A DNA stretch of 64,000 bases from Solirubrobacterales bacterium (GTDB lineage Bacteria; Actinomycetota; Thermoleophilia; Solirubrobacterales; 70-9), in the NCBI GenBank assembly GCA_020438295.1, contig JAGQUV010000005.1:1-64000 (forward strand), read 5' to 3'. Shown piece by piece: positions 2,726 to 32,122 of this stretch. Position 1 is the stretch's first letter, and each line of letters starts with the position of its first letter. The notes below the pieces were generated by a model, which saw only the letters and a program-made list of their open reading frames with translations, had not been told where the DNA came from and searched no databases. Position numbers and translations under genes: made by a program.

Positions 2726-4096
2726 ATGAGCCAGTACGCAGTCGTCAACCCGGCAACAGGCGAGACGGTCAAGGAGTACCCGACGATCTCCGACAGCGAG
2801 CTGTCCGACGCCATCGCGAGCGTCGATGAGGCTCACCGCAACTGGTCGGCGAACTCGACCCTGTCGGAGCGGACCGAGATGATCCGCAAGGTGGGCGCCC
2901 TGCACGGCGAGCGCCGCGAAGAGCTGGCCGACATCATCGTCCGGGAGATGGGCAAGCCGGTCGAGCAGGCGCTCGGCGAGGTCGACTTCTGCGTCGCGAT
3001 CTACGAGTACTACGCCGACAATGCCGAGGAATTCCTCAAGGACGAGCCGATCCCGCTGCTCGAAGGCGAAGGCACGGCGCTGATCCGGCGGAGCTCGCTG
3101 GGACCGCTGATCGGGATCATGCCCTGGAACTTCCCCTACTACCAGGTGGCCCGTTTCGCCGGACCGAACCTGACCCTCGGCAACACGGTCCTGCTCAAAC
3201 CGGCGCCCCAATGCCCGGAATCGGCCGAGGCGATCCAGGCCATGTACGACGACGCCGGCTTCCCCGAGGGGGCGTACGTCAACATCTTCGCCACCAACGA
3301 GCAGATCGCCGGGCTGATCGCCGACCCCCGGATCCGCGGAGTCTCGCTGACCGGCTCCGAGCGGGCCGGCGCCGCGGTGGCCGAGATCGCCGGGCGCAAC
3401 CTGAAGAAATGCGTACTGGAGCTGGGCGGATCGGACCCGTTCATCCTGCTCGCCACCGACGACCTGGATGAAGCGGTCGAGGCCGCGGTAGGCGCTCGGC
3501 TGGACAACAGCGGACAGGCCTGCAATGCGGCGAAGCGGTTCATCGTCGCCGACGAGCTCTACGACGATTTCCTCGAACGGTTCACCGCCGCCATGACCTC
3601 GACCGAGCCAGGGGACCCGACCGCCGAGGACGCGGCGATGGGGCCGCTCTCTTCCGAGACCGCGACCGAGCGCCTTCAGGACCAGCTGGACCGCGCGATC
3701 GCACAGGGCGCGACGGTCGTTGCCGGCGGTGACCGCGACGGCAACTACTTCAAGAGCACGGTGCTGACCGACGTTGCCCCCGATAACGACGCCTACCGTG
3801 AAGAGTTCTTCGGGCCGGTCGCCGCGGTGTACAAGGTCGGCTCCGAAGACGAGGCGATCGAGTTGGCCAACGACACTTCGTTCGGGCTCGGCTCATACGT
3901 CTTCTCGAACGACTCCGAACAGGCCGCGAGGATCGCCGACGGCCTCGACACCGGAATGGTGTTCGTCAACGGGGTCGGCCTGGACGGGGTCGAACTGCCG
4001 TTTGGCGGGGTTAAGCGTTCCGGCTTCGGACGCGAGCTCGGCCGCTACGGCATGGAGGAGTTCGTCAACAAGAAACTGATCCGGGTCGTGAAGTAG
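2726..4096 (+). CDS. NAD(P)-dependent succinate-semialdehyde/aldehyde dehydrogenase
   Basis: 456-aa ALDH-superfamily enzyme oxidising an aldehyde to its carboxylate. The usual landmarks are present: MPWNFPYYQ near residue 135, LELGG with the general base Glu232, and GQACNAAKRF with the catalytic Cys266. The NAAKRFIV context and the AFGGVKRSGFGRELG-type C-terminus are typical of the succinate-semialdehyde dehydrogenase (GabD/SSADH) branch. The start is the ATG at 2726 behind TTGGAGAG; the longer open frame upstream is arginine-rich non-coding translation. It is divergent from the GMC/ALDH pair. The physiological substrate is uncertain. Confidence 0.88.
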   Translation: MSQYAVVNPATGETVKEYPTISDSELSDAIASVDEAHRNWSANSTLSERTEMIRKVGALHGERREELADIIVREMGKPVEQALGEVDFCVAIYEYYADNAEEFLKDEPIPLLEGEGTALIRRSSLGPLIGIMPWNFPYYQVARFAGPNLTLGNTVLLKPAPQCPESAEAIQAMYDDAGFPEGAYVNIFATNEQIAGLIADPRIRGVSLTGSERAGAAVAEIAGRNLKKCVLELGGSDPFILLATDDLDEAVEAAVGARLDNSGQACNAAKRFIVADELYDDFLERFTAAMTSTEPGDPTAEDAAMGPLSSETATERLQDQLDRAIAQGATVVAGGDRDGNYFKSTVLTDVAPDNDAYREEFFGPVAAVYKVGSEDEAIELANDTSFGLGSYVFSNDSEQAARIADGLDTGMVFVNGVGLDGVELPFGGVKRSGFGRELGRYGMEEFVNKKLIRVVK

Positions 4097-6276: not shown

Positions 6277-6302
6277 GCTTCCAAGGAGAGAGTAGCGACC
6301 GA

Positions 6303-7754
6303 ATGGCACAACCCAAGTTCGTCGAGTTCGGCTCGCAGCCGATCGAGAAGTACCGGCACGTGATGGACGGAGAATTCGAGGCCATCGCGGCAGAAATGGA
6401 AGCGGTCCGCGACCGGTTCGCGGACCGTACCGTGTGGCACGTCAACTCGACGGCGCTCGGCGGAGGGGTGGCCGAAATGCTGCGGAGCTTCCTGCCGCTG
6501 GCTTGCGACGCGGGCGCGGACAACCGGTGGGTGGTTCTGAGCGAGCGCCCGGAATTCTTCGGGATCACCAAGCGGATCCACAACAAGCTCCACGGGCATC
6601 CCGGTGACGGCGGCCCGCTCGGCGCGAAGGAACGCGACGCGTACGACGAGATCCTCGCCGACAGCGCGAAGCAGTTGGTCAAGCTGTTCGGACCCGACGA
6701 CTTCGTCTTTCTCCATGATCCGCAGACCGCGGGCCTGATTCCCGCGGTGAGCGATTCCGGCGTCGGCACGCTCTGGCGGTGCCACGTCGGGGTGGACCGG
6801 ACCAACGAAAACGTGAACGAGGCAGTGGAGTTCCTGCTCCCCTACGTCGAACAGGCCGACGCGATCGTGTTCTCGAGGCAGTCCTATGCCTGGAAGGAGC
6901 TGCCGAAGGACAAGGTGTTCCTGATGCCGCCCGCGATCGACGCCTTCTCGCCGAAGAACCAGGAGCTGGAACCGGCGGTAGTGAGCGACATCCTGGGCAC
7001 GATCGGGCTGGGCCCGGACCGGCCGGCAAGTGACCCCGAGTTCGTACGCTCGGACGGCTCGACCGGAAAGGTCGAAAGCGAGGCCGAGATTCTGCAGGTT
7101 GAGCCGCTCCCCGAAGATGCGTTCCTGATCACGCAGATCTCGCGATGGGACGTCCTGAAGGACCACGAAGGCCTGCTCAAATGCTTCTCCGAATACCTCC
7201 GGGACACCGACGTGCATCTGGCCCTGGTCGGGCCGTCGAGCGCCGGGGTGGCCGACGACCCCGAAGGCCCGGCGGTCGGCTATCGCATCTTCTCTGCCTG
7301 GAAGGAACTGCCCGACGATCTGCGCCGTCGGGTCCACATCGTCAACCTGCCGATGGACGATTTCGACGAGAACGGGGTCATGGTCAATGCGATCCAGCGC
7401 CGCTCCGACATAGTCGTGCAGAAGAGCCTGGTCGAGGGTTTCGGGCTCACGGTGTCGGAGGCCATGTGGAAGGGAAAGCCGGTCGTGGCCAGCGCGGTCG
7501 GGGGTATCCAGGATCAGATCGTCGACGGCGAGTCGGGCATCCTGATCGACGATCCGACCGATCTCGACGCATTTGCCCGGGCGTTCGGGAGACTCATCAC
7601 TGATCCGGAACTGGCGGAATCCATGGGAAATGCGGCCAGGGAGAGGGTCAAACAGCGGTTCCTGGTGATCCCCAGGCTACGCGACTACGCCCGGGTCATC
7701 CTCTCGGCCGACGCGGAGATGGCCGCACGGGAAGGCGCCCCGGAAACCTCCTGA
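6303..7754 (+). CDS. treT: Trehalose synthase TreT (trehalose glycosyltransferring synthase)
   Basis: GT4-family retaining glycosyltransferase of 483 aa that joins an NDP-glucose and glucose to trehalose. The N-terminal Rossmann domain has VWHVNSTALGGGVAEML (residues 44-60), the signature of TreT. The C-terminal domain has ISRWDVLKDHEG, VVQKSLVEGFGLTVSEAMWKGKPVVASAVGG (the E-x7-E donor-site motif) and GESGILIDD. The ATG is preceded by AAGGAGAG. Trehalose would act as a compatible solute or stress protectant. It is monocistronic as far as the window shows. Confidence 0.9.
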   Translation: MAQPKFVEFGSQPIEKYRHVMDGEFEAIAAEMEAVRDRFADRTVWHVNSTALGGGVAEMLRSFLPLACDAGADNRWVVLSERPEFFGITKRIHNKLHGHPGDGGPLGAKERDAYDEILADSAKQLVKLFGPDDFVFLHDPQTAGLIPAVSDSGVGTLWRCHVGVDRTNENVNEAVEFLLPYVEQADAIVFSRQSYAWKELPKDKVFLMPPAIDAFSPKNQELEPAVVSDILGTIGLGPDRPASDPEFVRSDGSTGKVESEAEILQVEPLPEDAFLITQISRWDVLKDHEGLLKCFSEYLRDTDVHLALVGPSSAGVADDPEGPAVGYRIFSAWKELPDDLRRRVHIVNLPMDDFDENGVMVNAIQRRSDIVVQKSLVEGFGLTVSEAMWKGKPVVASAVGGIQDQIVDGESGILIDDPTDLDAFARAFGRLITDPELAESMGNAARERVKQRFLVIPRLRDYARVILSADAEMAAREGAPETS

Positions 7755-7818
7755 AGGTAGGCGTCCCGTCCTGTCTCCTCCGCCAGCGGGCGGGCCATTC
7801 GCTTGCCGCGGGGTCGGG

Positions 7819-8193
7819 TCAGGCCTCCGGGGGTGCGTAGCGGTGGTGCAGCACCAGGGTGTTGCCGTCGAGGTCGCCGAAGAAGGCCATATGGCAGACC
7901 CCGGTGTCCATCGTGTCACCGTTGAACTCGACCCCTTTTTCCTCCAGCTCGGAACGAGCCGCTTCGACGTCGTCGACCTGTAGAGCGATCGGCGCCTTGT
8001 GGGCACTGAACTCCATGCCGAAGCCGTCCGACTGCATGACCGCGAGGGTGAGGTTCCCGGTCTCGAATTCGCCGGCCGGCATTTCGCCCCACCGTTTCGA
8101 GCGCTCGAGGCCGAGCACGTCAACATAGAACTCTGCCGCCTTTTCGAAGTCCCGGGTCGGCACTGCCACGAAGTCAACTTCGTTCACGTTCAA
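7819..8193 (-). CDS. VOC-family (glyoxalase/bleomycin resistance fold) protein
   Basis: 124-aa vicinal-oxygen-chelate protein with two beta-alpha-beta-beta-beta modules: VDFVAVPTRDFEKAAEFYVDVLGL, then CHMAFFGDLDGNTLVLHHRY. Metal-type ligands could be the central Glu of FGMEFSAH and residues near LVLHHRY, but the set does not allow a specific reaction to be named. The start is taken as TTG at 8193, placed behind GGAGGATCACCC; the upstream frame gives a proline-rich non-family sequence. It converges on treT. Confidence 0.8.
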   Translation of the reverse strand: MNVNEVDFVAVPTRDFEKAAEFYVDVLGLERSKRWGEMPAGEFETGNLTLAVMQSDGFGMEFSAHKAPIALQVDDVEAARSELEEKGVEFNGDTMDTGVCHMAFFGDLDGNTLVLHHRYAPPEA

Positions 8194-19145: not shown

Positions 19146-20111
19146 CTACCCGGCGATGCAGCGGAACGAGATGTGGCAGGTCGAGCTTTCGACCGTCTCC
19201 GGGATCCTGGCCGCCGGCCGGTACCTGCTGCAGTAGTTCTCGGCACACAGGAACGACCCGCCCTTGAGCACCTTGCGAGGGATCCCGCTGGCCGGGTCGC
19301 GCGAGGCTTCGGCCCCCGGGCCGAGCGGATCGACCGGCGCGCAGCACGATTTCGCCGGCTCGCCGTGTCTGTTCGAGAACCAGGTCGCGGTCCACTCCCA
19401 GGCGTTCCCGGTCATTTCGAACAGGCCGAACGGGTTCGCCGGAAACGACCTCACCGGAACCGTGCCCGGCCGGCGGGGCCCGCCGGGCCGGGGCCTGAAC
19501 TTCCACGGGAACTCGCCGATCCAGCGGTTCATACGCTCCTCGCCACCGGGTGAGAGCTCGTCGCCCCAGCTGAACTCAAGGCCTTCGAGCCCGCCCCGGG
19601 CGGCCCGCTCCCACTGGGCCTCGGTCGGTAGTGATTTCCCGGCCCAGCGTGCGTAGGCGTCGGCATCCTGAAAGCTGACCTGGGTGACCGGATGGTCCTC
19701 CTTGCCTTCGAGGTCGCTCTGCGGTCCCCAGGGGTGCCTCCAGTCTGCACCCGGGGTCCAGGCCCACCAGCCCATCGGGTTGCCGAGGTCCACCGGGCCG
19801 GCCGGCTTGTCGAAAGTGATCGAGCCGGGCACCAGCAGCGCAGGATCTGCACCCGGGTACATGGCCGGGTCGGGCGCCTTCTCGGCCGTGGTCACGTGCC
19901 CGGTCTCCGTCACGAAGCGATCGAACTCGGCGTTGGTCACCGCGGTCTCGTCCATCCAGAACCCGCTGACCGCGACCGGTCCCGCCGGCGCCTCCTCGGG
20001 GTAGTGGTCGTCGCTGCCCATCTCGAAAGTGCCTTCCGGGACCCACCTCATACCCGGGTACGGGGGATCGTCGGCCGGGTGCCGCAGATCTGTCTCAGTC
20101 GGGGAATCCAT
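19146..20111 (-). CDS. Formylglycine-generating enzyme (SUMF1/FGE) family protein
   Basis: 321-aa FGE-sulfatase-fold protein. The N-terminal block MRWVPEGTFEMGSDDHYPEEAP, the middle HPVTQVSFQDADAYARWAGKSLPTEAQWERAARGG and NPFGLFEMTGNAWEW define the family. The copper-binding catalytic pair is present as Cys289 and Cys294 in GGSFLCAENYC, and C-terminal SSTCHISFRC is retained. A true FGE converts Cys to formylglycine in sulfatases, but no sulfatase with CxPxR is in the window. The ATG has its own leaderless -10 box. Confidence 0.88.
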   Translation of the reverse strand: MDSPTETDLRHPADDPPYPGMRWVPEGTFEMGSDDHYPEEAPAGPVAVSGFWMDETAVTNAEFDRFVTETGHVTTAEKAPDPAMYPGADPALLVPGSITFDKPAGPVDLGNPMGWWAWTPGADWRHPWGPQSDLEGKEDHPVTQVSFQDADAYARWAGKSLPTEAQWERAARGGLEGLEFSWGDELSPGGEERMNRWIGEFPWKFRPRPGGPRRPGTVPVRSFPANPFGLFEMTGNAWEWTATWFSNRHGEPAKSCCAPVDPLGPGAEASRDPASGIPRKVLKGGSFLCAENYCSRYRPAARIPETVESSTCHISFRCIAG

Positions 20112-20124: not shown

Positions 20125-21012
20125 TCTGTCCGGGTCCGCCGGCCCCCCGGCCGACGGGGGCCCCGGCCCGATGCCGTGCTGCTCGAGGAAATCGGCGATC
20201 ACGCGGGAAAGACGACTGCCGCGCCAGGCCAGGGGCGGTTCGTCGTCGTCTTCGGAGACCAGGGTCGCCGAACCGAGCGCGTCGGCGTAGCGGCTGGCCA
20301 CTTCGTACGGGTGGCCGGGGTCGAACCGGTCGTGACTTGCGATGACCAGTGCCGGAGCGGTCACCTGCCCGAGGTCGACGATCCGGTCGAAAGGGCTGGA
20401 AACGGGGACCTGGCGCAATGCTTCGGCCACCGCGTCACGCCGTCTATGGAGTCCGGCCCGGTCCCGGGCCAGGCGCTCGGCGGTCGCGGCCGCCCCTTCG
20501 TCGTCGAACCCCTCTGCCGCGACCAGCCCGTAGGCCTCCGGTCCCTCCTGTTCCAGGACGCGGGCCCTCCGTTCCCACTCGTGCAGGTCCGATCGGCGAC
20601 TTTCCCCGACGTAGACCGGCCCGATCAGGATCAGGGCCGCCAGCCGGGCGGGGTTGGCCAGCGCCCACGAAGCCGCGGTGTGGCTGCCCATCGAGTGACC
20701 CCCGACTACCAGCGGCCCGTCCGCGCACTGTGAATCGATCACCCGCTCCAGGTCGTGGGTCAGCCGGGCGTAGTCGTATCCGTCGCCGGCCGGGTCCGAT
20801 ACCCCGTGTCCGCGCGCGTCGTAGGTGACTACCCGGTAGCCCCGGCGGGCCAGCGCGGTCGAGCCGTGGAGCACGTACCTCCGGGTAGCCGACAGCCCGT
20901 GGCAGAGGACCACGTCGGGGCCATCCCCGATCGTCTCGCCGCGGAGCAGCGGCCCCTCCCCACTGACGGTGAACTCGGTCGGGACCGGCGCAGGAGGGCT
21001 GATCGCGCTCAG
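20122..21012 (-). CDS. Alpha/beta hydrolase with probable CTG start
   Basis: Serine hydrolase. HG-x-SATRRYV (oxyanion), YDARGHGVSDP, the elbow GGHSMGSHTA (Ser107 counted from the CTG) and SHDRFDP (acid) are visible. The first GTG (20913) would start directly at VVLCHG and delete the first two beta strands. Upstream codons in frame read TEFTVSGEGPLLRGETIGDGPD, clearly family-like, back to CTG at 21012-21010. That CTG overlaps the TGA of the cyclophilin gene as CTGA. I therefore extend the gene to 297 codons with CTG as likely initiator. The substrate is unknown. Confidence 0.75.
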   Translation of the reverse strand: MSAISPPAPVPTEFTVSGEGPLLRGETIGDGPDVVLCHGLSATRRYVLHGSTALARRGYRVVTYDARGHGVSDPAGDGYDYARLTHDLERVIDSQCADGPLVVGGHSMGSHTAASWALANPARLAALILIGPVYVGESRRSDLHEWERRARVLEQEGPEAYGLVAAEGFDDEGAAATAERLARDRAGLHRRRDAVAEALRQVPVSSPFDRIVDLGQVTAPALVIASHDRFDPGHPYEVASRYADALGSATLVSEDDDEPPLAWRGSRLSRVIADFLEQHGIGPGPPSAGGPADPDR

Positions 21013-21644
21013 CCCTTCACGAGCGTGGCTTTCTCGATCACCACGTCCCTGGTCGGCTGCTCGTCGGCGCCGCCGAGCGCACCGATCGCCTCGACCACGT
21101 CCATCCCGCTCTCGACCTTCCCGACCAGCGCGTATTCTGGGGGCAGGCTCCGCCCACCGGCGCCGGTGACTACGTAGAACTGACTGCCCGATGTGCCGGC
21201 CGCCTCGGATCCGGACTTCGCCATCGCCACCACCCCCGGGGTGTACTCGAGGTCCCGGGGTGGCGCCTCGACCACCTTGTATCCGGGCCCGCCGGTTCCG
21301 TCGCCGAGCGGGTCGCCCCCCTGGATCACGAAATCGGGCACGATCCGGTGGAAACCGAGTCCGTCGTAGAAGCCCTGTTCGGCCAGGTAGGCGAAGTTGT
21401 TCGCGGTCACCGGCGCCCGCTCGGTGTCGAGCGCGATCGTGAAGTCTCCCTCGCTCGTCTCCATGGTCACCGAAGCCGGCTGCCCTTGCTCGACCACCTG
21501 GTCGGGGCGGTCGAGTCGTTCCGTCTTGACCACCGGTGCGTCCGGCCCGTCGTCGTCGCCCTGGCCGACCAGCACCACGACCACCACCGCGATCATCAGC
21601 AGCCCGGCCACCAGCAGGGTCGTCAGCTTGCTCCGAGCGCTCAT
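21009..21644 (-). CDS. Membrane-anchored cyclophilin-type peptidyl-prolyl isomerase
   Basis: 211 aa: one N-terminal membrane anchor (about 7-27), a linker, and the cyclophilin domain with VTANNFAYLAEQGFYDGLGFHRIVPDFVIQGGDPLGDGTGGPGY and GSQFYVV, covering the catalytic Arg (FHRI) and Gln/Phe positions. It should assist folding of exported proteins on the outer face of the membrane. ATG 21644 is chosen because a -10 box ends 8 nt before it and MSARSKL leads into the anchor. It is the first gene of the minus-strand run down to 16710. Confidence 0.88.
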   Translation of the reverse strand: MSARSKLTTLLVAGLLMIAVVVVVLVGQGDDDGPDAPVVKTERLDRPDQVVEQGQPASVTMETSEGDFTIALDTERAPVTANNFAYLAEQGFYDGLGFHRIVPDFVIQGGDPLGDGTGGPGYKVVEAPPRDLEYTPGVVAMAKSGSEAAGTSGSQFYVVTGAGGRSLPPEYALVGKVESGMDVVEAIGALGGADEQPTRDVVIEKATLVKG

Positions 21645-21737: not shown

Positions 21738-22394
21738 GTGGCTGAACCCCATACCCCGCCCAACCGCCGGGTGATACTGGCCGGCAAGACGATCAGCTCG
21801 ATCGTGGCCAATGCCCCGTGGGCCTGGCCGCTGATCAGGCGCCCCGTGACGCGGTTCTTCGACTCGGCCGCGCAGGGCTGGGACTCCCGCACCGGGTCGG
21901 CCTCTTCGGAACGGCTCGCCGCGCTCGCCTCGGCCGTCCTGGAGGTCGATCGCTCCCCCGAGCGCATCCTGGACATCGGCTGCGGTACCGGGTCCGCGAC
22001 CGTCTTCCTGGCCCGCGAATTCCCCAGAGCCACGATTCGCGGGGTCGATATCTCACCGGCAATGATCCACGAGGCCCGCAAGAAGGTCGGTCTGGACCCC
22101 GAGGCGCGAATCGCTTTCCGGGAGGGCGACGCGTCGCAGCTTCCGTTCCCCGACGCCGGCTTCGACCTGGTCACCCAGAACAACATGCCGGTCTTCTTCG
22201 GTGAGATCTCCAGGGTCCTGCGTCCCGGCGGGTACGTGGTCATCGCTTCGAGCCTCGGCCGCCGCACGCCGTTCAGCACACCGGAATCGCTGATCCGCCG
22301 TAAGTTCCGGCGCCACGGGATCGTGACCACCGGGACCGGCGCAGCCGGGGCGGGCACCTGGTTGGTGGGTCGCAAGGAGCCCCAGGCCCGATGA
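21738..22394 (+). CDS. Class I SAM-dependent methyltransferase
   Basis: 218-aa methyltransferase with motif I ILDIGCGTGSATVFLA, motif II RGVDISPAMIHEARK, FREGDASQLPFPDAGFDLVT and motif for strand 5 VLRPGGYVVIAS. It resembles UbiE/COQ5-like small-molecule methyltransferases; the acceptor is unknown. GTG 21738 is chosen over an in-frame start at 21672 because the extra residues are not family-like and a weak leaderless -10 precedes the GTG. Its stop overlaps the lipid kinase ATG (ATGA), placing it first in the murT-gatD operon. Confidence 0.8.
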   Translation: MAEPHTPPNRRVILAGKTISSIVANAPWAWPLIRRPVTRFFDSAAQGWDSRTGSASSERLAALASAVLEVDRSPERILDIGCGTGSATVFLAREFPRATIRGVDISPAMIHEARKKVGLDPEARIAFREGDASQLPFPDAGFDLVTQNNMPVFFGEISRVLRPGGYVVIASSLGRRTPFSTPESLIRRKFRRHGIVTTGTGAAGAGTWLVGRKEPQAR

Positions 22395-23290
22395 GCCCGC
22401 TGACCGAGCCCAACCTGCTTCTGATCGTCAACCCGAGCGCCGGAACCGGTCGCTCCGCCCGGATCCTGCCCGAGGTGGAACGCAGGCTGGACGACCTGCG
22501 CCAGGTGTTCCGGGTCGAACGGACCCGTTCGCTGGAACACGGTATCGACCTGGCGCTGGACGCGATCGAGGCCCGCGAGATCCCGGTGGTGGTCAGCGGT
22601 GACGGGCTGATCGGCGCGATCGGCGGTGCAGTCGCCGGCTCGGCCGTCCCGATCGGGATCATCCCCGGAGGCCGGGGCAACGACCTGGCCAGGGGCCTCG
22701 GCATCCCCCTAGACCCGGCCGAAGCGGTCGACTGCCTGGTCGCCGGGCGGGTCAGGCGGATCGACGTCGGGGAGGCCAACGGCGAACGATTCCTCGGGAT
22801 CGCATCGGTCGGATTCGATTCCGAGGCCAACCGAATCGCCAACGAGGCCCGGCTCCTGAAAGGGAACCTCGTCTACGCGTACGCCGCGCTCAGGGCACTG
22901 GCCCGGTGGAAACCGGCCCGGTTCACCCTGGCCGAGGGAGAGATCCGGTCCCGCTTCACCGGCTACACGGTCGCCGTGGCCAACAACCGCTTCTACGGCG
23001 GGGGCATGATGGTCGCCCCCGAGGCCGAAATCGACGACGGGAAGTTCGACCTGATCACGGTCAGCGACAGCTCGAAAGTGCGCTTCCTGCTCAACCTGCC
23101 GAAGGTGTTCAAAGGGACGCACGTCGAGCTGGAGGACTCGGTCTCACAGCGCCGGGTCTCCCGTCTGGAGGTCAGCGCCAGCCGTCCGATGACCGTCTAT
23201 GCCGACGGCGACCCGCTGACCGAGCTCCCGGCACGGTTCAGGATCCTGCCGGAGGCGCTCGGGGTGATCGTGCCCGGGGACGAAGCTTGA
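22391..23290 (+). CDS. Diacylglycerol kinase-family lipid kinase
   Basis: 299 aa of the DAGK catalytic-domain family (DgkB/YegS type): LLIVNPSAGTGRSARILPEV at the N-terminus, PVVVSGDGLIGAIGGAV (equivalent of the GGDGT nucleotide loop, here SGDGL), IIPGGRGNDLARGLGIP, and C-terminal PMTVYADGDPLTELPARFRI. It phosphorylates a lipid alcohol such as diacylglycerol or a related substrate at the membrane. The SGDGL variant of the loop is unusual. It overlaps both neighbours by 4 nt (ATGA upstream, TTGA downstream). Confidence 0.85.
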   Translation: MSPLTEPNLLLIVNPSAGTGRSARILPEVERRLDDLRQVFRVERTRSLEHGIDLALDAIEAREIPVVVSGDGLIGAIGGAVAGSAVPIGIIPGGRGNDLARGLGIPLDPAEAVDCLVAGRVRRIDVGEANGERFLGIASVGFDSEANRIANEARLLKGNLVYAYAALRALARWKPARFTLAEGEIRSRFTGYTVAVANNRFYGGGMMVAPEAEIDDGKFDLITVSDSSKVRFLLNLPKVFKGTHVELEDSVSQRRVSRLEVSASRPMTVYADGDPLTELPARFRILPEALGVIVPGDEA

Positions 23291-24639
23291 TCCGGCTCAA
23301 GGCCGCTTTCGCCCGGCTGATCGGCCGTTTGATCCGCTTCACCGGCAGGGGTGGCGGAACTACGCTGCCGGGAAGGGTGCTGCTCAAGCTCGATCGCGAC
23401 GCGGTGGACAAACTCGGCGCCGGCCTGAGCGAAGGATCGACCCTGATCAGCGCGACCAACGGCAAGACCACCACCGCCTCCATGCTGGCCGTGATCCTCG
23501 CGGCCGAAGGCCGGCACCCGGTCCACAACCGCACCGGCTCGAACATGAACTGGGGCGTGGCCACCGCCCTGCTCGAACAGGACGGAGACGAAGGCCTGTT
23601 CGAGGTCGACGAGGCCTGGTTGGCCGAAACCGCATCACGGCTCGACCCCCACACCATTCTGCTGGCGAATCTCTTCCGCGACCAACTGGACCGATACGGG
23701 GAGACCGAGGCTCTGGCCGACGCCTGGCTCGGATTGGCCCGGGAACGGGCCGCGTCTACGACGTTCGTCCTCAACGCCGACGACCCGCTGGTCGCCGACA
23801 TCGGCCGGGCAAGCGGACCGGACACCAGCTATTTCGGGATCGAGGACGGTTCGGTGGCGTCGGCCGAGCTCCAGCACGCCAGCGACGCCAAGAACTGTCG
23901 CGTCTGCGGCGCCGAGCTCACCTACGAGCTGGCCTTCGTGGGCCATCTCGGCCACTACCGATGCCCCTCCTGCGGGATGGTACGCCCGGCACCCGAGGTC
24001 AGCGCCCACGAGGTCAGGCTCACCGGAATGACCGGACTCGGCGCCCGCATCCGGTCCCCGGAGGGGTCGGCCGAGCTCGAGCTGCCCCTGCCCGGGCTCT
24101 ACAACCTGTACAACGCGCTCGGCGCAATAGCCACCGCCCGGGCGCTGGGGATCCCGGTCGGGGCGGCGGTCGCGAGCCTCGCCTCGATGAAGGCCGTGTT
24201 CGGGCGGGTCGAGCGGATCCCGGTCGGCAGCACCGAGCTTTCGATCCTGCTGATCAAGAACCCGGCCGGTGCGAACGAGGTCCTGCGCACCCTCGCCCTG
24301 GAGCCGGAGCCGGTCGACCTCTGGGTCGGGCTGAACGACCGGATCGCCGATGGCCGTGACGTCTCCTGGATCTGGGACGCCGACTTCGAGGAGCTGGCCG
24401 ACCGGGTGCGATCGGTCGTCTGCGCCGGTACCAGGGCTCCGGAGATGGCGGTCCGCCTGAAGTACGCCGGCTGGCCCACCGAGCGGATCGAGGTGGTCGG
24501 TGAACTCGACCGCAGCCTGGAACGGGCATTGGAGGCGCGACCCGGCCGGCTGTTCGCACTGCCTACCTACACCGCCCTGCTCGAGCTTCGCCAGCTGCTC
24601 GCCGACCGCTACGACGCCGACCGTTACTGGCAAGGTTGA
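23287..24639 (+). CDS. murT: Lipid II isoglutaminyl synthase, MurT subunit
   Basis: 450-aa Mur-ligase-like ATPase that activates the D-Glu carboxylate of lipid II so GatD can amidate it. Central domain: ISATNGKTTTASML (P-loop about 55-62) and FEVDEAWL. A four-Cys zinc ribbon interrupts it (Cys204, Cys207, Cys226, Cys229: CRVCG…CPSCG), a hallmark of MurT. The C-terminal DUF1727 domain has LWVGLNDRIADGRDVSWIWDADFE, which contributes an Asp to the GatD active site in the known complex. Start TTG 23287 overlaps the previous stop (TTGA). Confidence 0.92.
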   Translation: MIRLKAAFARLIGRLIRFTGRGGGTTLPGRVLLKLDRDAVDKLGAGLSEGSTLISATNGKTTTASMLAVILAAEGRHPVHNRTGSNMNWGVATALLEQDGDEGLFEVDEAWLAETASRLDPHTILLANLFRDQLDRYGETEALADAWLGLARERAASTTFVLNADDPLVADIGRASGPDTSYFGIEDGSVASAELQHASDAKNCRVCGAELTYELAFVGHLGHYRCPSCGMVRPAPEVSAHEVRLTGMTGLGARIRSPEGSAELELPLPGLYNLYNALGAIATARALGIPVGAAVASLASMKAVFGRVERIPVGSTELSILLIKNPAGANEVLRTLALEPEPVDLWVGLNDRIADGRDVSWIWDADFEELADRVRSVVCAGTRAPEMAVRLKYAGWPTERIEVVGELDRSLERALEARPGRLFALPTYTALLELRQLLADRYDADRYWQG

Positions 24640-25376
24640 GACTCCCCGGCGACTGGTGCTCGGAAGCGTCGATCTGGCAGCTGGTCGAGTCCTGCGGCTA
24701 CTCGGCCGACCTGGAGGCCTGGCACGACCTGGCCCGCAACAGTCGTACCGGGGTCCTCGACCTGGGCTGCGGGATCGGCCGTGTCGCCCACGATCTGGCC
24801 CGATCCGGTATCCCGGTCACCGGGATCGACCTGGACGCGGGCATCGTCGCCGACTTCAATCGGCTCTCGCCTGAGCCGGGCACCCGGGCATTGGCCGGTG
24901 ACGCAGCCGATCCGGAGCTGCCCGGTGGTCACTTCGACCGGATCATCGCGCCTCAGCAGCTGCTCCAGATACTGGGTGGCCGCCAGCACCGTGAGGCTCT
25001 GATCACCGCCACCGCCTCGAGGCTCACCGCCGGGGGCGTCGCCGCGTTCGCCTTTTCGGAGGAACTGCCCGCCGAGAGCGTCGAGCCGGTCCTGATGCCG
25101 GACCTCCGCGAAGTCGAAACCTGGATCTATTCGAGCCGCCCGGTCCGGCTCGAGGCCGGGCCCGACTCGGTCACTGTCCACCGGCTTCGGCAGCGGGTCT
25201 CGCCGGACGGCGAACTGGTCGAGACCCGAGACCGGACCACGCTCGCCCGACTCACCCGGGACGAGTTGGCCGATGAGCTGATCGCCGCCGGCCTCGGGCC
25301 CAGCGGCTGGATCGAGGTTCCGGCGACCGACCTGCACGTCGCCTCGGTGATCGCGATAGCCGGTCCGGTCGGCTGA
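24636..25376 (+). CDS. SAM-dependent methyltransferase embedded between murT and gatD
   Basis: 246 aa, class I methyltransferase fold: VLDLGCGIGRVAHDLARSGIPVTGIDLD (motifs I-II), GDAADPELPGGHFDRIIAPQQLLQIL, then LTAGGVAAFAFSEEL. The C-terminal half (EVETWIYSSRPVRLEAGPDSVTVHRLRQRV…TLARLTRDELADEL) is a beta-rich methyltransferase tail. Start TTG 24636 overlaps the murT stop (TTGA), so it is translated with MurT. The acceptor is unknown; the context suggests lipid II, a lipid intermediate or a cell-wall precursor. Confidence 0.8.
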   Translation: MRLPGDWCSEASIWQLVESCGYSADLEAWHDLARNSRTGVLDLGCGIGRVAHDLARSGIPVTGIDLDAGIVADFNRLSPEPGTRALAGDAADPELPGGHFDRIIAPQQLLQILGGRQHREALITATASRLTAGGVAAFAFSEELPAESVEPVLMPDLREVETWIYSSRPVRLEAGPDSVTVHRLRQRVSPDGELVETRDRTTLARLTRDELADELIAAGLGPSGWIEVPATDLHVASVIAIAGPVG

Positions 25377-25380
25377 GCCG

Positions 25381-25386
25381 TATGGT
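25381..25386 (+). promoter_or_regulatory. Leaderless promoter -10 box (TATGGT) of gatD
   Basis: TATGGT begins 5 nt after the methyltransferase stop and is followed by 6 nt and the gatD ATG. This would be an internal promoter giving a leaderless gatD mRNA. Confidence 0.5.
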
Positions 25387-25392
25387 CTGCTG

Positions 25393-26130
25393 ATGCGACT
25401 TCGCCTGCTCAGTCTCTATCCGGACCAGATGAACATCTATGCCGACCGGGGGAACCTCACCTTCCTCCGCAAGCGCTGCGAATGGCGCGGGATCGGGTTC
25501 GAGCTGACCCGATGCGGCATCGGGGACCGGTTCGACCCGGAAGCGCACGACCTGATCTACATCGGCGGCGGTCAGGACCGCGACCAGAAAGCGGTCGCCG
25601 AGGACCTGGTCAGGAACAAGCGGGACCAGATGTTTCTGGCCCACGAAGGTGGCGCGGTGATCCTCGCGGTCTGCGGCGGATACCAGTTGCTGGGCCGCTC
25701 CTACCAGCTCGAGGACGAGCAGATCGAAGGCCTCGGCCTGGCCGGCCTCGAGACCGTTCGTGATCCAGGCCCGCGGCTGATCGGGCCGGTCTCGATCACG
25801 GTCGAGATCGACGACACCGAGCGGGTCGTCGCCGGCTTCGAGAACCATGGCGGCAGGACCTGGCTCGATCCCGGCTGCCGGCCGCTGGGAACGGTTCGCT
25901 CGGGCTACGGCAACAACGGAAAGGACGGCCTCGAAGGCGTCCGCGACGGAAATCTGATCGGGACATACCTGCATGGCCCGCTGCTCCCCAAGAATGCGTG
26001 GCTCGCCGACCACCTGATCGGACTGGCCCTCGAGCACGGCGGCAGCGGCCGGGTGGAGCTCGAACCTCTGGACGACCGGCTGGAGTCTGCCGCCCACCGG
26101 TCGGCGCTGAGCGCGGCCGACGCGCGCTGA
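25393..26130 (+). CDS. gatD: Lipid II isoglutaminyl synthase, glutamine amidotransferase subunit GatD
   Basis: 245-aa class I glutamine amidotransferase of the CobQ/CobB-like branch, partner of MurT. It hydrolyses glutamine and passes ammonia to MurT for amidation of the second stem residue of peptidoglycan. The nucleophile Cys94 is in AVCGGYQLLG and the His194 base in GTYLHGPLLPKN. PRLIG near 127-131 holds the substrate-binding Arg region of known GatD proteins. There is no ribosome site; a -10 box ends 6 nt before the ATG. It is separated from murT by one methyltransferase gene. Confidence 0.92.
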   Translation: MRLRLLSLYPDQMNIYADRGNLTFLRKRCEWRGIGFELTRCGIGDRFDPEAHDLIYIGGGQDRDQKAVAEDLVRNKRDQMFLAHEGGAVILAVCGGYQLLGRSYQLEDEQIEGLGLAGLETVRDPGPRLIGPVSITVEIDDTERVVAGFENHGGRTWLDPGCRPLGTVRSGYGNNGKDGLEGVRDGNLIGTYLHGPLLPKNAWLADHLIGLALEHGGSGRVELEPLDDRLESAAHRSALSAADAR

Positions 26131-30030: not shown

Positions 30031-31200
30031 TCAGGCCAGGTGTTCGCGCAGGCGCTCGAGCGCCTCGGTCAACCTGGAATCCGGGGTGGTCAGGGAGATC
30101 CGGAAGTACCCCTCGCCGCTCCGGCCGTACATCGACCCGGGCGAGACCACGACCGCCGCTTCTTCGAGGACCATCTCGGCGAACGAGGTCGAGCTGTGCC
30201 CGTCGGGAACCGGGGCCCAGACGTAGATCGTGCCTTTGGGCGAGGCGACGTCGACCCCGATCGCGCGCAGCGTCTCGACCACGAGATCCCGTCGCCTGGA
30301 ATAGATCGCGTTCATCTCGTCCAGCGGACCGCGCGGACCGGTGAGCGCGGCGGCCGCGGCCAGCTGGATCGCGTCGAAAAGGCCCGAATCGACGTTGGTC
30401 TTGAGTCGCCAGTAGGCCGAGATTGCGTCTGCGTTTCCGAGGATCGCCCCGACCCTCCAGCCGGTCATGTTGAAGCCCTTCGACAGCGAGAAGACCTCGA
30501 CTCCGACCTCTTTCGCACCATCGGTGGCCAGGAAGCTCGGGGCGACGTACCCGTCATAGGTCGTCTCGGAGTAGGCGTTGTCGTGCACGACCAGGATCTC
30601 GTTCTCCCGGGCGAACGCGACCACCTCCTCGAAGAACCCTTCGGGAACGACCGCTCCGCTGGGATTGTTCGGGTAGTTCAGGAACAGCAGACGCGCCCGC
30701 TCGCGGGTGAGCCGGTCGATCGCCCCGAGGTCGGGAGCGAAATCGCGCTTCGGCAGCAGCGGCAGCAGGACCACCTCGGCGCCGGCCAGGATCGGCCCGC
30801 CGGTGTAGACCGGGTAACCGGGATCGGAAGCCAGGGCGACGTCGCCCGGGTCCAGGAAGGCGAAGCAGAGGTTGTAGATGCATTCCTTGGCCCCGATCGC
30901 CGGGATTACCTCGGAGCCGGGGTCGATATCGACCCCGAATCGCTCGAGATAGAAATCGGAGAAAGCCTGGCGGAACTCCTCGCGACCCCGGTTGCTCGGG
31001 TACTTCTGGTTCGCGTTCTCGGCAACCGCGGCCTGCATCGCCTCCACAATGTGCGGATAGGTGGCCATGTCCGGGTCACCAATCCCGAGGCTGATCACAT
31101 CGATCCCGGCGGCCCGTTTGTCGGCGATCCGGCGTTCCAGCTCGGCGAACATGTACGGAGGCATCGCCTCGAGTCTTTTGGATGGGTCTGTGAGCGCCAA
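30031..31200 (-). CDS. dapL: LL-diaminopimelate aminotransferase
   Basis: 389-aa class I/II PLP aminotransferase converting tetrahydrodipicolinate directly to LL-diaminopimelate with glutamate, bypassing DapC/D/E. The pattern LGIGDPDMATYPHIVEAM, YPSNRGREEFRQAF, NYPNNPSGAV and the PLP lysine in SLSKGFNMTGWRVG are those of DapL. Start TTG 31200 lies behind AGGAGGAGAACAG. dapF is directly upstream in the same transcript (63-nt gap), as expected since DapF uses the product. No dapC, dapD or dapE gene is in the window. Confidence 0.88.
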   Translation of the reverse strand: MALTDPSKRLEAMPPYMFAELERRIADKRAAGIDVISLGIGDPDMATYPHIVEAMQAAVAENANQKYPSNRGREEFRQAFSDFYLERFGVDIDPGSEVIPAIGAKECIYNLCFAFLDPGDVALASDPGYPVYTGGPILAGAEVVLLPLLPKRDFAPDLGAIDRLTRERARLLFLNYPNNPSGAVVPEGFFEEVVAFARENEILVVHDNAYSETTYDGYVAPSFLATDGAKEVGVEVFSLSKGFNMTGWRVGAILGNADAISAYWRLKTNVDSGLFDAIQLAAAAALTGPRGPLDEMNAIYSRRRDLVVETLRAIGVDVASPKGTIYVWAPVPDGHSSTSFAEMVLEEAAVVVSPGSMYGRSGEGYFRISLTTPDSRLTEALERLREHLA

Positions 31201-31263
31201 CTGTTCTCCTCCTCTTGTCTTCTGGCCGTGGTCAGGCGGTCGCCGGGCCTCGCCGGCGCCGTT

Positions 31264-32109
31264 TCAATCCGGGATTCCGTCCAGCGACTCGATCATCTCC
31301 GGGGAAAACCGGCCACTCAGGATCGGTTCCGCCCAACCGCTCAGGGTCACGTCGAGTTCCGGGCTTATCTCCACCTGGAGCTCGCCCCCGTCGAGCTCGA
31401 CCGTGACCGGGCTCTCGGCGCCGGAGAGGAATGCGGCCACCGCCGCGCCGGTGGCCCCGGTGCCGGACGAAAGAGTCTCACCGACGCCCCGCTCGAAGAT
31501 CCGGGCCCTGACCCGTGAGCCCGAAGCCCGGAAGAACGAGACGTTGGTGCGGTTCGGGAACAGCTCGCTATTCTCGATGGACGGCCCCAGCAGCTCCAGG
31601 TCCAGCTCCTCCAGCCCCGAACCGACCTCGATCGCGCACTGCGGGTTGCCGATCGAAACATGCCGGAACGACCAGTCCTGGCCTCCCGAATTGACCGTAC
31701 CCCGGCCGTCGCTGTCGCCGCTCGGGTAGTCGTCCGATTCGGTCGTGGCGCGGCCGAGTTCCACCGAACAGGTGCGCTCGGAAGTGATCGTAGGGGTCAC
31801 CGGGCCCGACTCGGTAAGGATCGTGAACGAGTCCAGGTCGGTCCAGCCGTGCCGCCTGAGGTAGAGGATCGCCTCCCGCGCACCGTTCCCCGACAGCTCG
31901 GCCTCCGATCCGTCCGGGTTGAAAATCCGCAGCCCGGCGACGTAGTCGGGCTGGTCGCTGGCCGAGATCAGCAGGATCCCGTCGGAGCCGACGCCGAAGT
32001 GGGGATCGCAGATCCGCTGGATCCGCTGCTGGGTCAGGTCCCACGGCAGTACCTCCTGCTCGAGGATCACGTAGTCGTTCCCCAGGGCTTGCCATTTCTC
32101 GAACTTCAT
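31264..32109 (-). CDS. dapF: Diaminopimelate epimerase-family protein with Ser in place of both catalytic Cys
   Basis: 281 aa, DapF fold: KFEKWQALGNDYVILE at the N-terminus, FNPDGSEAELSGNGAREAILYLRR and GVGETLSSGTGATGAAVA in the second half. In characterised DapF these two blocks read CGNGAR and CGTGA, each with a catalytic Cys. Here both are Ser (Ser73 and Ser215), and the codons (TCG, TCC) are unambiguous. The rest of the active site, including GNPQ and ERGVGET, is intact. It may epimerise by a modified mechanism, act on another substrate, or be supported by another enzyme. ATG 32109 is preferred to TTG 32121. Confidence 0.88.
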   Translation of the reverse strand: MKFEKWQALGNDYVILEQEVLPWDLTQQRIQRICDPHFGVGSDGILLISASDQPDYVAGLRIFNPDGSEAELSGNGAREAILYLRRHGWTDLDSFTILTESGPVTPTITSERTCSVELGRATTESDDYPSGDSDGRGTVNSGGQDWSFRHVSIGNPQCAIEVGSGLEELDLELLGPSIENSELFPNRTNVSFFRASGSRVRARIFERGVGETLSSGTGATGAAVAAFLSGAESPVTVELDGGELQVEISPELDVTLSGWAEPILSGRFSPEMIESLDGIPD

Positions 32110-32122
32110 CCGGACTGCCAAC

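What the first reader, a model, noticed from the sequence alone, without database searches (positions are those of the whole stretch)
21738..26130. MurT/GatD operon with an embedded methyltransferase and a lipid kinase
Seen: methyltransferase, DAGK-family kinase, murT, methyltransferase and gatD are consecutive, four of them joined by 4-nt ATGA/TTGA overlaps. Known: MurT and GatD act as one complex amidating lipid II. Inference: the methyltransferase translated between the two subunits may modify the same lipid-linked substrate, a wall modification that to my knowledge is not described.
Basis: partly seen in the sequence, partly recalled or inferred. Interest (0 to 1): 0.75.

Follow-up and report, generated by a model that had tools for sequence, protein, structure and literature searches.

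The report
Methyltransferase conserved inside murT–gatD operon
In one class of soil and water actinobacteria, a gene for a methyl-adding enzyme sits, conserved and overlapping its neighbour, between the two genes that amidate the cell-wall precursor; it may add a methyl group to the same precursor, but some genomes keep it without the two wall genes, so what it acts on is still unknown.

Summary
In this Solirubrobacterales genome the order is methyltransferase (MTa) – YegS/DAGK-type lipid kinase – murT – methyltransferase (MTb) – gatD. Three 4-nt overlaps join the first four genes; gatD follows after 16 nt. MurT and GatD carry the catalytic residues of lipid II isoglutaminyl synthase. MTb lies directly downstream of murT, same strand, in at least 79 of 91 sampled order genomes holding either gene and at least 25 of 26 genomes of a second family of the class. 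Literature searches found no report of this. MTb keeps its SAM site and is under purifying selection. Its closest curated family (daptide methyltransferase) and most characterised fold neighbours methylate primary amines. Gene content speaks against MTb being a MurT/GatD subunit: nine sampled genomes have murT–gatD without MTb, two lack murT and gatD but keep MTb overlapping the kinase, three keep kinase–MTb–gatD with murT elsewhere. I favour an envelope-precursor N-methyltransferase, possibly acting on the free amine of meso-DAP (about 0.4 for a peptidoglycan precursor); substrate and chemistry are untested.

The parts
21738..22394 (+). MTa: small UbiE-like class I SAM methyltransferase, first gene of the unit; found upstream mainly in the same family (f1)
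   Evidence: ORF; Methyltransf_25/11; upstream in f1 relatives with 53-83% identity, plus one 40% hit in f4
22391..23290 (+). DAGK/YegS-family lipid kinase; ATGA overlap with MTa
   Evidence: PF19279 and PF00781; TIGR00147 over cut-off; 4wer/DgkB/YegS structures; present upstream of murT across families f1-f3
23287..24639 (+). murT: Mur-ligase-like catalytic subunit of lipid II isoglutaminyl synthase, TTG start, TTGA overlap with DAGK
   Evidence: PF08353 119 bits; NF045635 254.7 bits; aligned nearly full length to 6fqb and 6gs2 MurT with NGKTTT, DE, the Cys4 zinc ribbon and the NDxxADGxDxSW motif kept
24636..25376 (+). MTb: class I SAM-dependent methyltransferase between murT and gatD, TTG start, TTGA overlap with murT
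   Evidence: Methyltransf_25 44.9 bits; orthologues in the same slot; model pLDDT 95.6, pTM 0.92; dN/dS 0.28 against its closest relative
25393..26130 (+). gatD: glutamine amidotransferase subunit, starts 16 nt after the MTb stop
   Evidence: PF07685 122 bits; NF045636 169.5 bits; aligned to 6gs2/5n9m GatD with the CGGYQ nucleophile region and the YLHGPxLPKN motif kept
30031..32121 (-). Neighbourhood: LL-diaminopimelate aminotransferase (30031-31200) and DapF (31264-32121), DAP-supply genes 4-6 kb from gatD
   Evidence: NF006756 and TIGR00652 over cut-off

Best explanation
This is a conserved envelope operon of Thermoleophilia (lipid kinase - murT - MTb - gatD). MurT/GatD amidates the D-isoglutamate of lipid-linked peptidoglycan precursor, as in other Gram-positives (residues shown, activity inferred). 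MTb is an active, separate SAM-dependent methyltransferase, made in step with MurT through overlapping translation. It most likely methylates a primary amine on a peptidoglycan precursor; the best candidate is the free amine of the meso-DAP residue, or else a de-N-acetylated sugar. It would work beside, and independently of, the amidation complex. Shown: genes, conservation, predicted fold, SAM motif, presence independent of murT/gatD. Inferred: enzymatic activity, N rather than O or C chemistry, peptidoglycan precursor as substrate, meso-DAP as site.
For: murT-MTb-gatD order across three families of the order and again in family f5, where no DAGK match lies within the fetched stretch, so the wall pair is the constant partner there. 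A start codon giving the 4-nt murT/MTb overlap is present in 32 loci (start choice favoured overlaps). In three genomes murT moved away but DAGK-MTb-gatD stayed joined. SAM-site glycines G44, G46 and G48, and W14, E18, D25 and R185, are invariant in 43 sequences; f5 shares E18, Y22, D25, W29 and an M[QN]TxQxL motif. Closest curated family is daptide_MTase, up to 108 bits over about 200 of 243 positions, an enzyme that N,N-dimethylates a primary amine (PMC10036551). Fold neighbours are CypM, TylM1, DesVI, CalS10, KedS8, CcbJ, MtfA (Z 21-24, 2.4-3.9 A), N-methyltransferases by title or general knowledge. DapF and LL-DAP aminotransferase genes nearby; meso-DAP in Solirubrobacter hydrolysates (PMC10722151).
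Against: G297 and G369 keep MTb (overlapping DAGK) without murT or gatD, so the link with the wall pair is not obligatory. In the order the lipid kinase is nearly as constant a neighbour as murT. Solirubrobacter carries MTb paralogues elsewhere, one beside a phosphopantetheinyl transferase gene, so the family can serve other substrates. The fold group also holds C-methyltransferases (PsmD, SeMT, SgMT). MTb evolves faster than its neighbours (dN/dS 0.28 against about 0.15). Published stem-peptide methylation is reported on Glu, mDAP or terminal Ala and, in P. aeruginosa, as O-methylation, not on the amine.
Confidence: 0.4

Rival explanations
1. MTb acts on a membrane lipid: with the DAGK/YegS kinase it makes or edits a (phospho)lipid, for example by methylating the amine of an aminophospholipid, and shares the operon with murT/gatD because all serve envelope growth.
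For: In G297 and G369 MTb stays joined to the kinase where murT and gatD are missing; kinase present upstream through most of f1-f3; an unidentified aminophospholipid is reported in a Solirubrobacter species (PMC10722151).
Against: In all eight f5 loci read, MTb sits between murT and gatD with no DAGK match in the stretch; the kinase occurs without MTb in G005, G007, G016, G020 and G458. The fold is not specific to lipid methyltransferases.
Confidence: 0.2
2. MTb methylates a soluble metabolite or low-molecular-weight thiol unrelated to the wall; its place in the operon is a frozen gene order that gives coupled translation but no shared substrate.
For: MTb and murT/gatD each occur without the other; paralogues lie in other contexts; bacillithiol N-methyltransferase NmbA shares nearest structural neighbours with MTb (3D2L, CypM, CcbJ; PMC12719100).
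Against: The slot after murT is held in at least 104 sampled genomes of two lineages and the MTb-gatD link survived murT relocation, which is much for a gene with no common role.
Confidence: 0.28
3. MTb is a regulatory or structural third subunit of the MurT/GatD complex rather than a free enzyme.
For: The gene lies between those of the two subunits with overlapping frames.
Against: murT-gatD without MTb occurs in nine sampled genomes (G005, G007, G016, G020, G021, G024, G027, G030, G458); MTb without either occurs in two; the SAM site is fully conserved; the solved complex is a GatD/MurT pair (PMC6113224).
Confidence: 0.05

Closest known systems
MurT/GatD lipid II isoglutaminyl synthase operon (S. 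aureus, S. pneumoniae, M. tuberculosis)
   Same: Same two subunits; catalytic motifs of both kept.
   Different: In the described operons murT and gatD are neighbours; here a methyltransferase gene separates them and a lipid kinase gene precedes them.
Daptide-type RiPP methyltransferase (NF041820, MpaM)
   Same: Closest curated model; near full-length match, 46 to 108 bits.
   Different: Below the 175-bit cut-off; no daptide genes recognised among the neighbours; the slot is in a wall operon.
CypM / TylM1 / CcbJ / MtfA natural-product N-methyltransferases
   Same: Same whole-chain fold, Z 21-24; act on amines of peptides, amino sugars or small molecules.
   Different: Only 16-20% identity; secondary-metabolite enzymes, not tied to murT/gatD.
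Reported methylation of stem peptides (M. smegmatis lipid II; P. aeruginosa muropeptides)
   Same: Methyl groups on peptidoglycan precursors or stem peptides exist (PMC12632261, PMC9239049).
   Different: Reported on Glu, mDAP or terminal Ala (O-methylation in P. aeruginosa) in other organisms; no methyltransferase named in the passages read; no link to MTb shown.

Membership tests
MurT (lipid II isoglutaminyl synthase, catalytic subunit) | Mur ligase middle domain plus MurT_C (PF08353) over the curated cut-off | tested here: met
   PF08353 118.9 bits vs 25; PF08245 66.5 bits vs 24
MurT (lipid II isoglutaminyl synthase, catalytic subunit) | Nucleotide motif, Mg-binding Glu (E108), Cys4 zinc ribbon, Asp349 context | tested here: met
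   Aligned to 6gs2_B: SATNGKTTT, EVDEAW, CRVCG...CPSCG and LNDRIADGRDVSWIWD present; roles from PMC6113224
GatD (glutaminase subunit) | Cys94 nucleophile, His189 and HGP motif | tested here: met
   AVCGGYQLLG and GTYLHGPLLPKN aligned to 6gs2_A/5n9m_A
MurT/GatD equivalog (NCBIfam NF045635/NF045636) | Score over the curated equivalog cut-off | tested here: not met
   254.7 vs 800 and 169.5 vs 400 bits; the Staphylococcus-specific models also score below cut-off. So filed by Pfam domain and motifs, not as these equivalogs
MurT/GatD | Amidation of lipid II in vitro | not testable with these tools
   needs enzyme assay
Class I SAM-dependent methyltransferase | GxGxG SAM motif, acidic residue after strand 2, Rossmann-like fold | tested here: met
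   MTb G44/G46/G48 and D65 invariant, D67 nearly invariant; fold
Daptide methyltransferase NF041820 | Score over 175 bits | tested here: not met
   45.6 to 107.9 bits in five members of the MTb family
CypM/TylM1-type amine N-methyltransferase | Methyl transfer to an amine | not testable with these tools
   fold agrees; the group also holds C-methyltransferases
YegS/DAGK lipid kinase | DAGK_cat and YegS_C domains over cut-off | tested here: met
   88.5 and 151.9 bits
YegS/DAGK lipid kinase | Canonical GDGT at the active-site loop | tested here: not met
   GDG kept in 35 of 35, but the next residue is L, V or M in at least 30 of 35

The most novel reading that the evidence does not exclude
MTb is a dedicated peptidoglycan-precursor methyltransferase that N-methylates the free amine of meso-DAP (or a sugar amine) on UDP-MurNAc peptide or lipid I/II, a new cell-wall modification and an enzyme for precursor methylation.
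Probability: 0.25. Interest if true: 0.8.

Novelty: new variant of a known kind. Interest (0 to 1): 0.5.

Why it matters
Methyl groups on wall precursors have been reported without a known function. A methyltransferase held in the murT–gatD slot across much of a bacterial class, including cultured Patulibacter, Conexibacter and Solirubrobacter, gives a specific candidate enzyme. The natural absences (MTb without murT/gatD, and the reverse) make the question testable by comparing strains. If the amine of meso-DAP is methylated it would bear on cross-linking and on recognition of DAP-type peptidoglycan.

Tried and rejected
(1) Chance neighbourhood: rejected, adjacency holds in at least 104 sampled genomes. 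(2) MTb as an obligatory MurT/GatD subunit: rejected on gene content. (3) Decayed gene: rejected, SAM motif intact and dN/dS 0.28. (4) Presence of the arrangement in the rest of the phylum: among 296 genomes, hits outside the class were weaker (E 1e-20 to 1e-30, mostly part-length); adjacency to murT was checked for two of these genomes only, G252 (murT on another contig) and G087 (no murT match). (5) Trees of MurT and MTb including f5: the sampled MTbs form one clade against three outgroup sequences (support 0.99), but two broken MurT fragments distort the MurT tree and f6/f8/f9 lie between, so ancestral origin with losses versus transfer of the operon is unresolved. (6) Paper searches for a methyltransferase with MurT/GatD or for peptidoglycan methyltransferases returned nothing on this locus. 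(8) The order that f5 belongs to could not be named.
Full report
WHAT IS THERE. MTa 21738-22394, DAGK 22391-23290, murT 23287-24639 and MTb 24636-25376 are joined by ATGA, TTGA and TTGA overlaps; gatD, 25393-26130, begins 16 nt after the MTb stop. Pfam and NCBIfam name them as a UbiE-like methyltransferase, a YegS/DAGK lipid kinase, MurT, a class I methyltransferase and GatD. MurT and GatD align along nearly their whole length with the solved S. pneumoniae and S. aureus complexes. They keep the nucleotide motif, the Asp-Glu pair, the four zinc-ribbon cysteines, the NDxxADGxDxSW stretch and, in GatD, the CGGYQ nucleophile region and HGP motif (roles from PMC6113224). They score below the NCBIfam equivalog cut-offs, so the filing rests on domains and motifs. 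The genome is a Solirubrobacterales/Thermoleophilia MAG by its nearest named relatives.

CONSERVATION. In the same genus MTb lies directly after murT in 14 of 17 genomes with a murT locus. In 200 sampled genomes of the class, restricted to the order and family f5, 79 order genomes and 25 of 26 f5 genomes have MTb directly downstream on the same strand. Some further rows were cut by the output limit: G085 was confirmed adjacent, and G385, G465 and G351 were not checked. Among named genomes the order DAGK–murT–MTb–gatD is found in Patulibacter americanus (L080), Solirubrobacter soli (L096) and Candidatus S. pratensis (L093), and murT–MTb–gatD in Conexibacter sp. S30A1 (L089). A start codon placing MTb 4 nt inside murT exists in 32 loci (my start choice preferred overlaps, but an in-frame start codon had to be there). 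In f5, eight of eight loci read have murT–MTb–gatD with no kinase match nearby. The f5 MTbs are far in sequence but share E18, Y22, D25, W29 and an M[QN]TxQxL motif with the order.

THE PARTNERS ARE SEPARABLE. Nine sampled genomes have murT–gatD and lack MTb: G005, G007, G016, G020, four genomes of family f4 and G458. Two, G297 (96% complete) and G369 (94%), have no murT and no gatD match in the genome yet keep MTb overlapping the kinase gene (for G297). In G324, G325 and G485 murT has moved to another contig while kinase–MTb–gatD stay together. So MTb is not an obligatory part of the MurT/GatD machine and cannot need its product everywhere.

THE ENZYME. A2, 43 MTb sequences, has invariant SAM-motif glycines and conserved W14, E18, D25, Q108/Q111 and R183/R185. 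Against the closest relative (L068) MTb has dN/dS 0.28, the other four genes about 0.15. The AlphaFold2 model has mean pLDDT 95.6 and pTM 0.92. Its nearest solved chains are CypM (Z 23.8, 2.4 Å, 221 residues), TylM1, DesVI, CcbJ, CalS10, KedS8, glycine sarcosine N-methyltransferase and MtfA. These are N-methyltransferases by title or general knowledge, although C-methyltransferases (PsmD, SeMT, SgMT) share the fold. The closest curated family is the daptide methyltransferase (45.6 to 107.9 bits, cut-off 175), which dimethylates a terminal primary amine (PMC10036551). I therefore favour methylation of a primary amine. In a DAP-type wall precursor the free primary amine is that of meso-DAP (established biochemistry); meso-DAP is reported for Solirubrobacter (PMC10722151), and LL-DAP aminotransferase and DapF are encoded 4-6 kb away. 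This last step is inference.

WHAT IS KNOWN. The paper searches found no paper on this arrangement; the library holds open-licence papers only. Methylation of stem-peptide Glu, mDAP or terminal Ala in M. smegmatis lipid II and O-methylation of the terminal Ala in P. aeruginosa are documented with function unknown (PMC12632261, PMC9239049). The proposed kind of modification therefore has precedent, while no methyltransferase is named in the passages I read.

VERDICT. Confidence in a peptidoglycan-precursor substrate is about 0.4, in a lipid substrate about 0.2, in an unrelated soluble substrate about 0.28.

Noticed in passing
L184 (G297) 6380-7989; L207 (G369) 6290-7950: Two Solirubrobacterales genomes (94-96% complete) have no murT or gatD match but keep MTb overlapping the DAGK gene, next to dut/hflX in G297.
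   Followed up: yes
window 22391-23290: The lipid kinase family has GDG followed by L, V or M instead of the usual T at the active-site loop in most of 35 relatives, so its activity or substrate may differ from DgkB.
   Followed up: partly
L072 6384-6968; L081 about 3220-3840: In some Thermoleophilaceae-like genomes an extra ORF lies between murT and MTb; in L072 it matches gamma-glutamylamine cyclotransferase (GGACT, PF06094, 27 bits). The L081 insert was not scanned.
   Followed up: partly
L215 5653-6366; L099 6983-7717; L108 6989-7714: Solirubrobacter genomes carry a second MTb paralogue away from murT; the one in S. soli overlaps a phosphopantetheinyl transferase gene.
   Followed up: partly
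L107: A record titled Bifidobacterium breve MAG carries the full DAGK-murT-MTb-gatD operon of Solirubrobacterales and is probably mislabelled or contaminated.
   Followed up: no
L209 5523-6878; L211 5585-6946; L210: In G485, G325 and G324 murT sits alone near what look by eye like maf and ndk genes, away from DAGK-MTb-gatD.
   Followed up: partly
window 19146-20111 and 21009-21644: A formylglycine-generating-enzyme-like gene and a cyclophilin-type peptidyl-prolyl isomerase gene lie divergently upstream of the operon.
   Followed up: no
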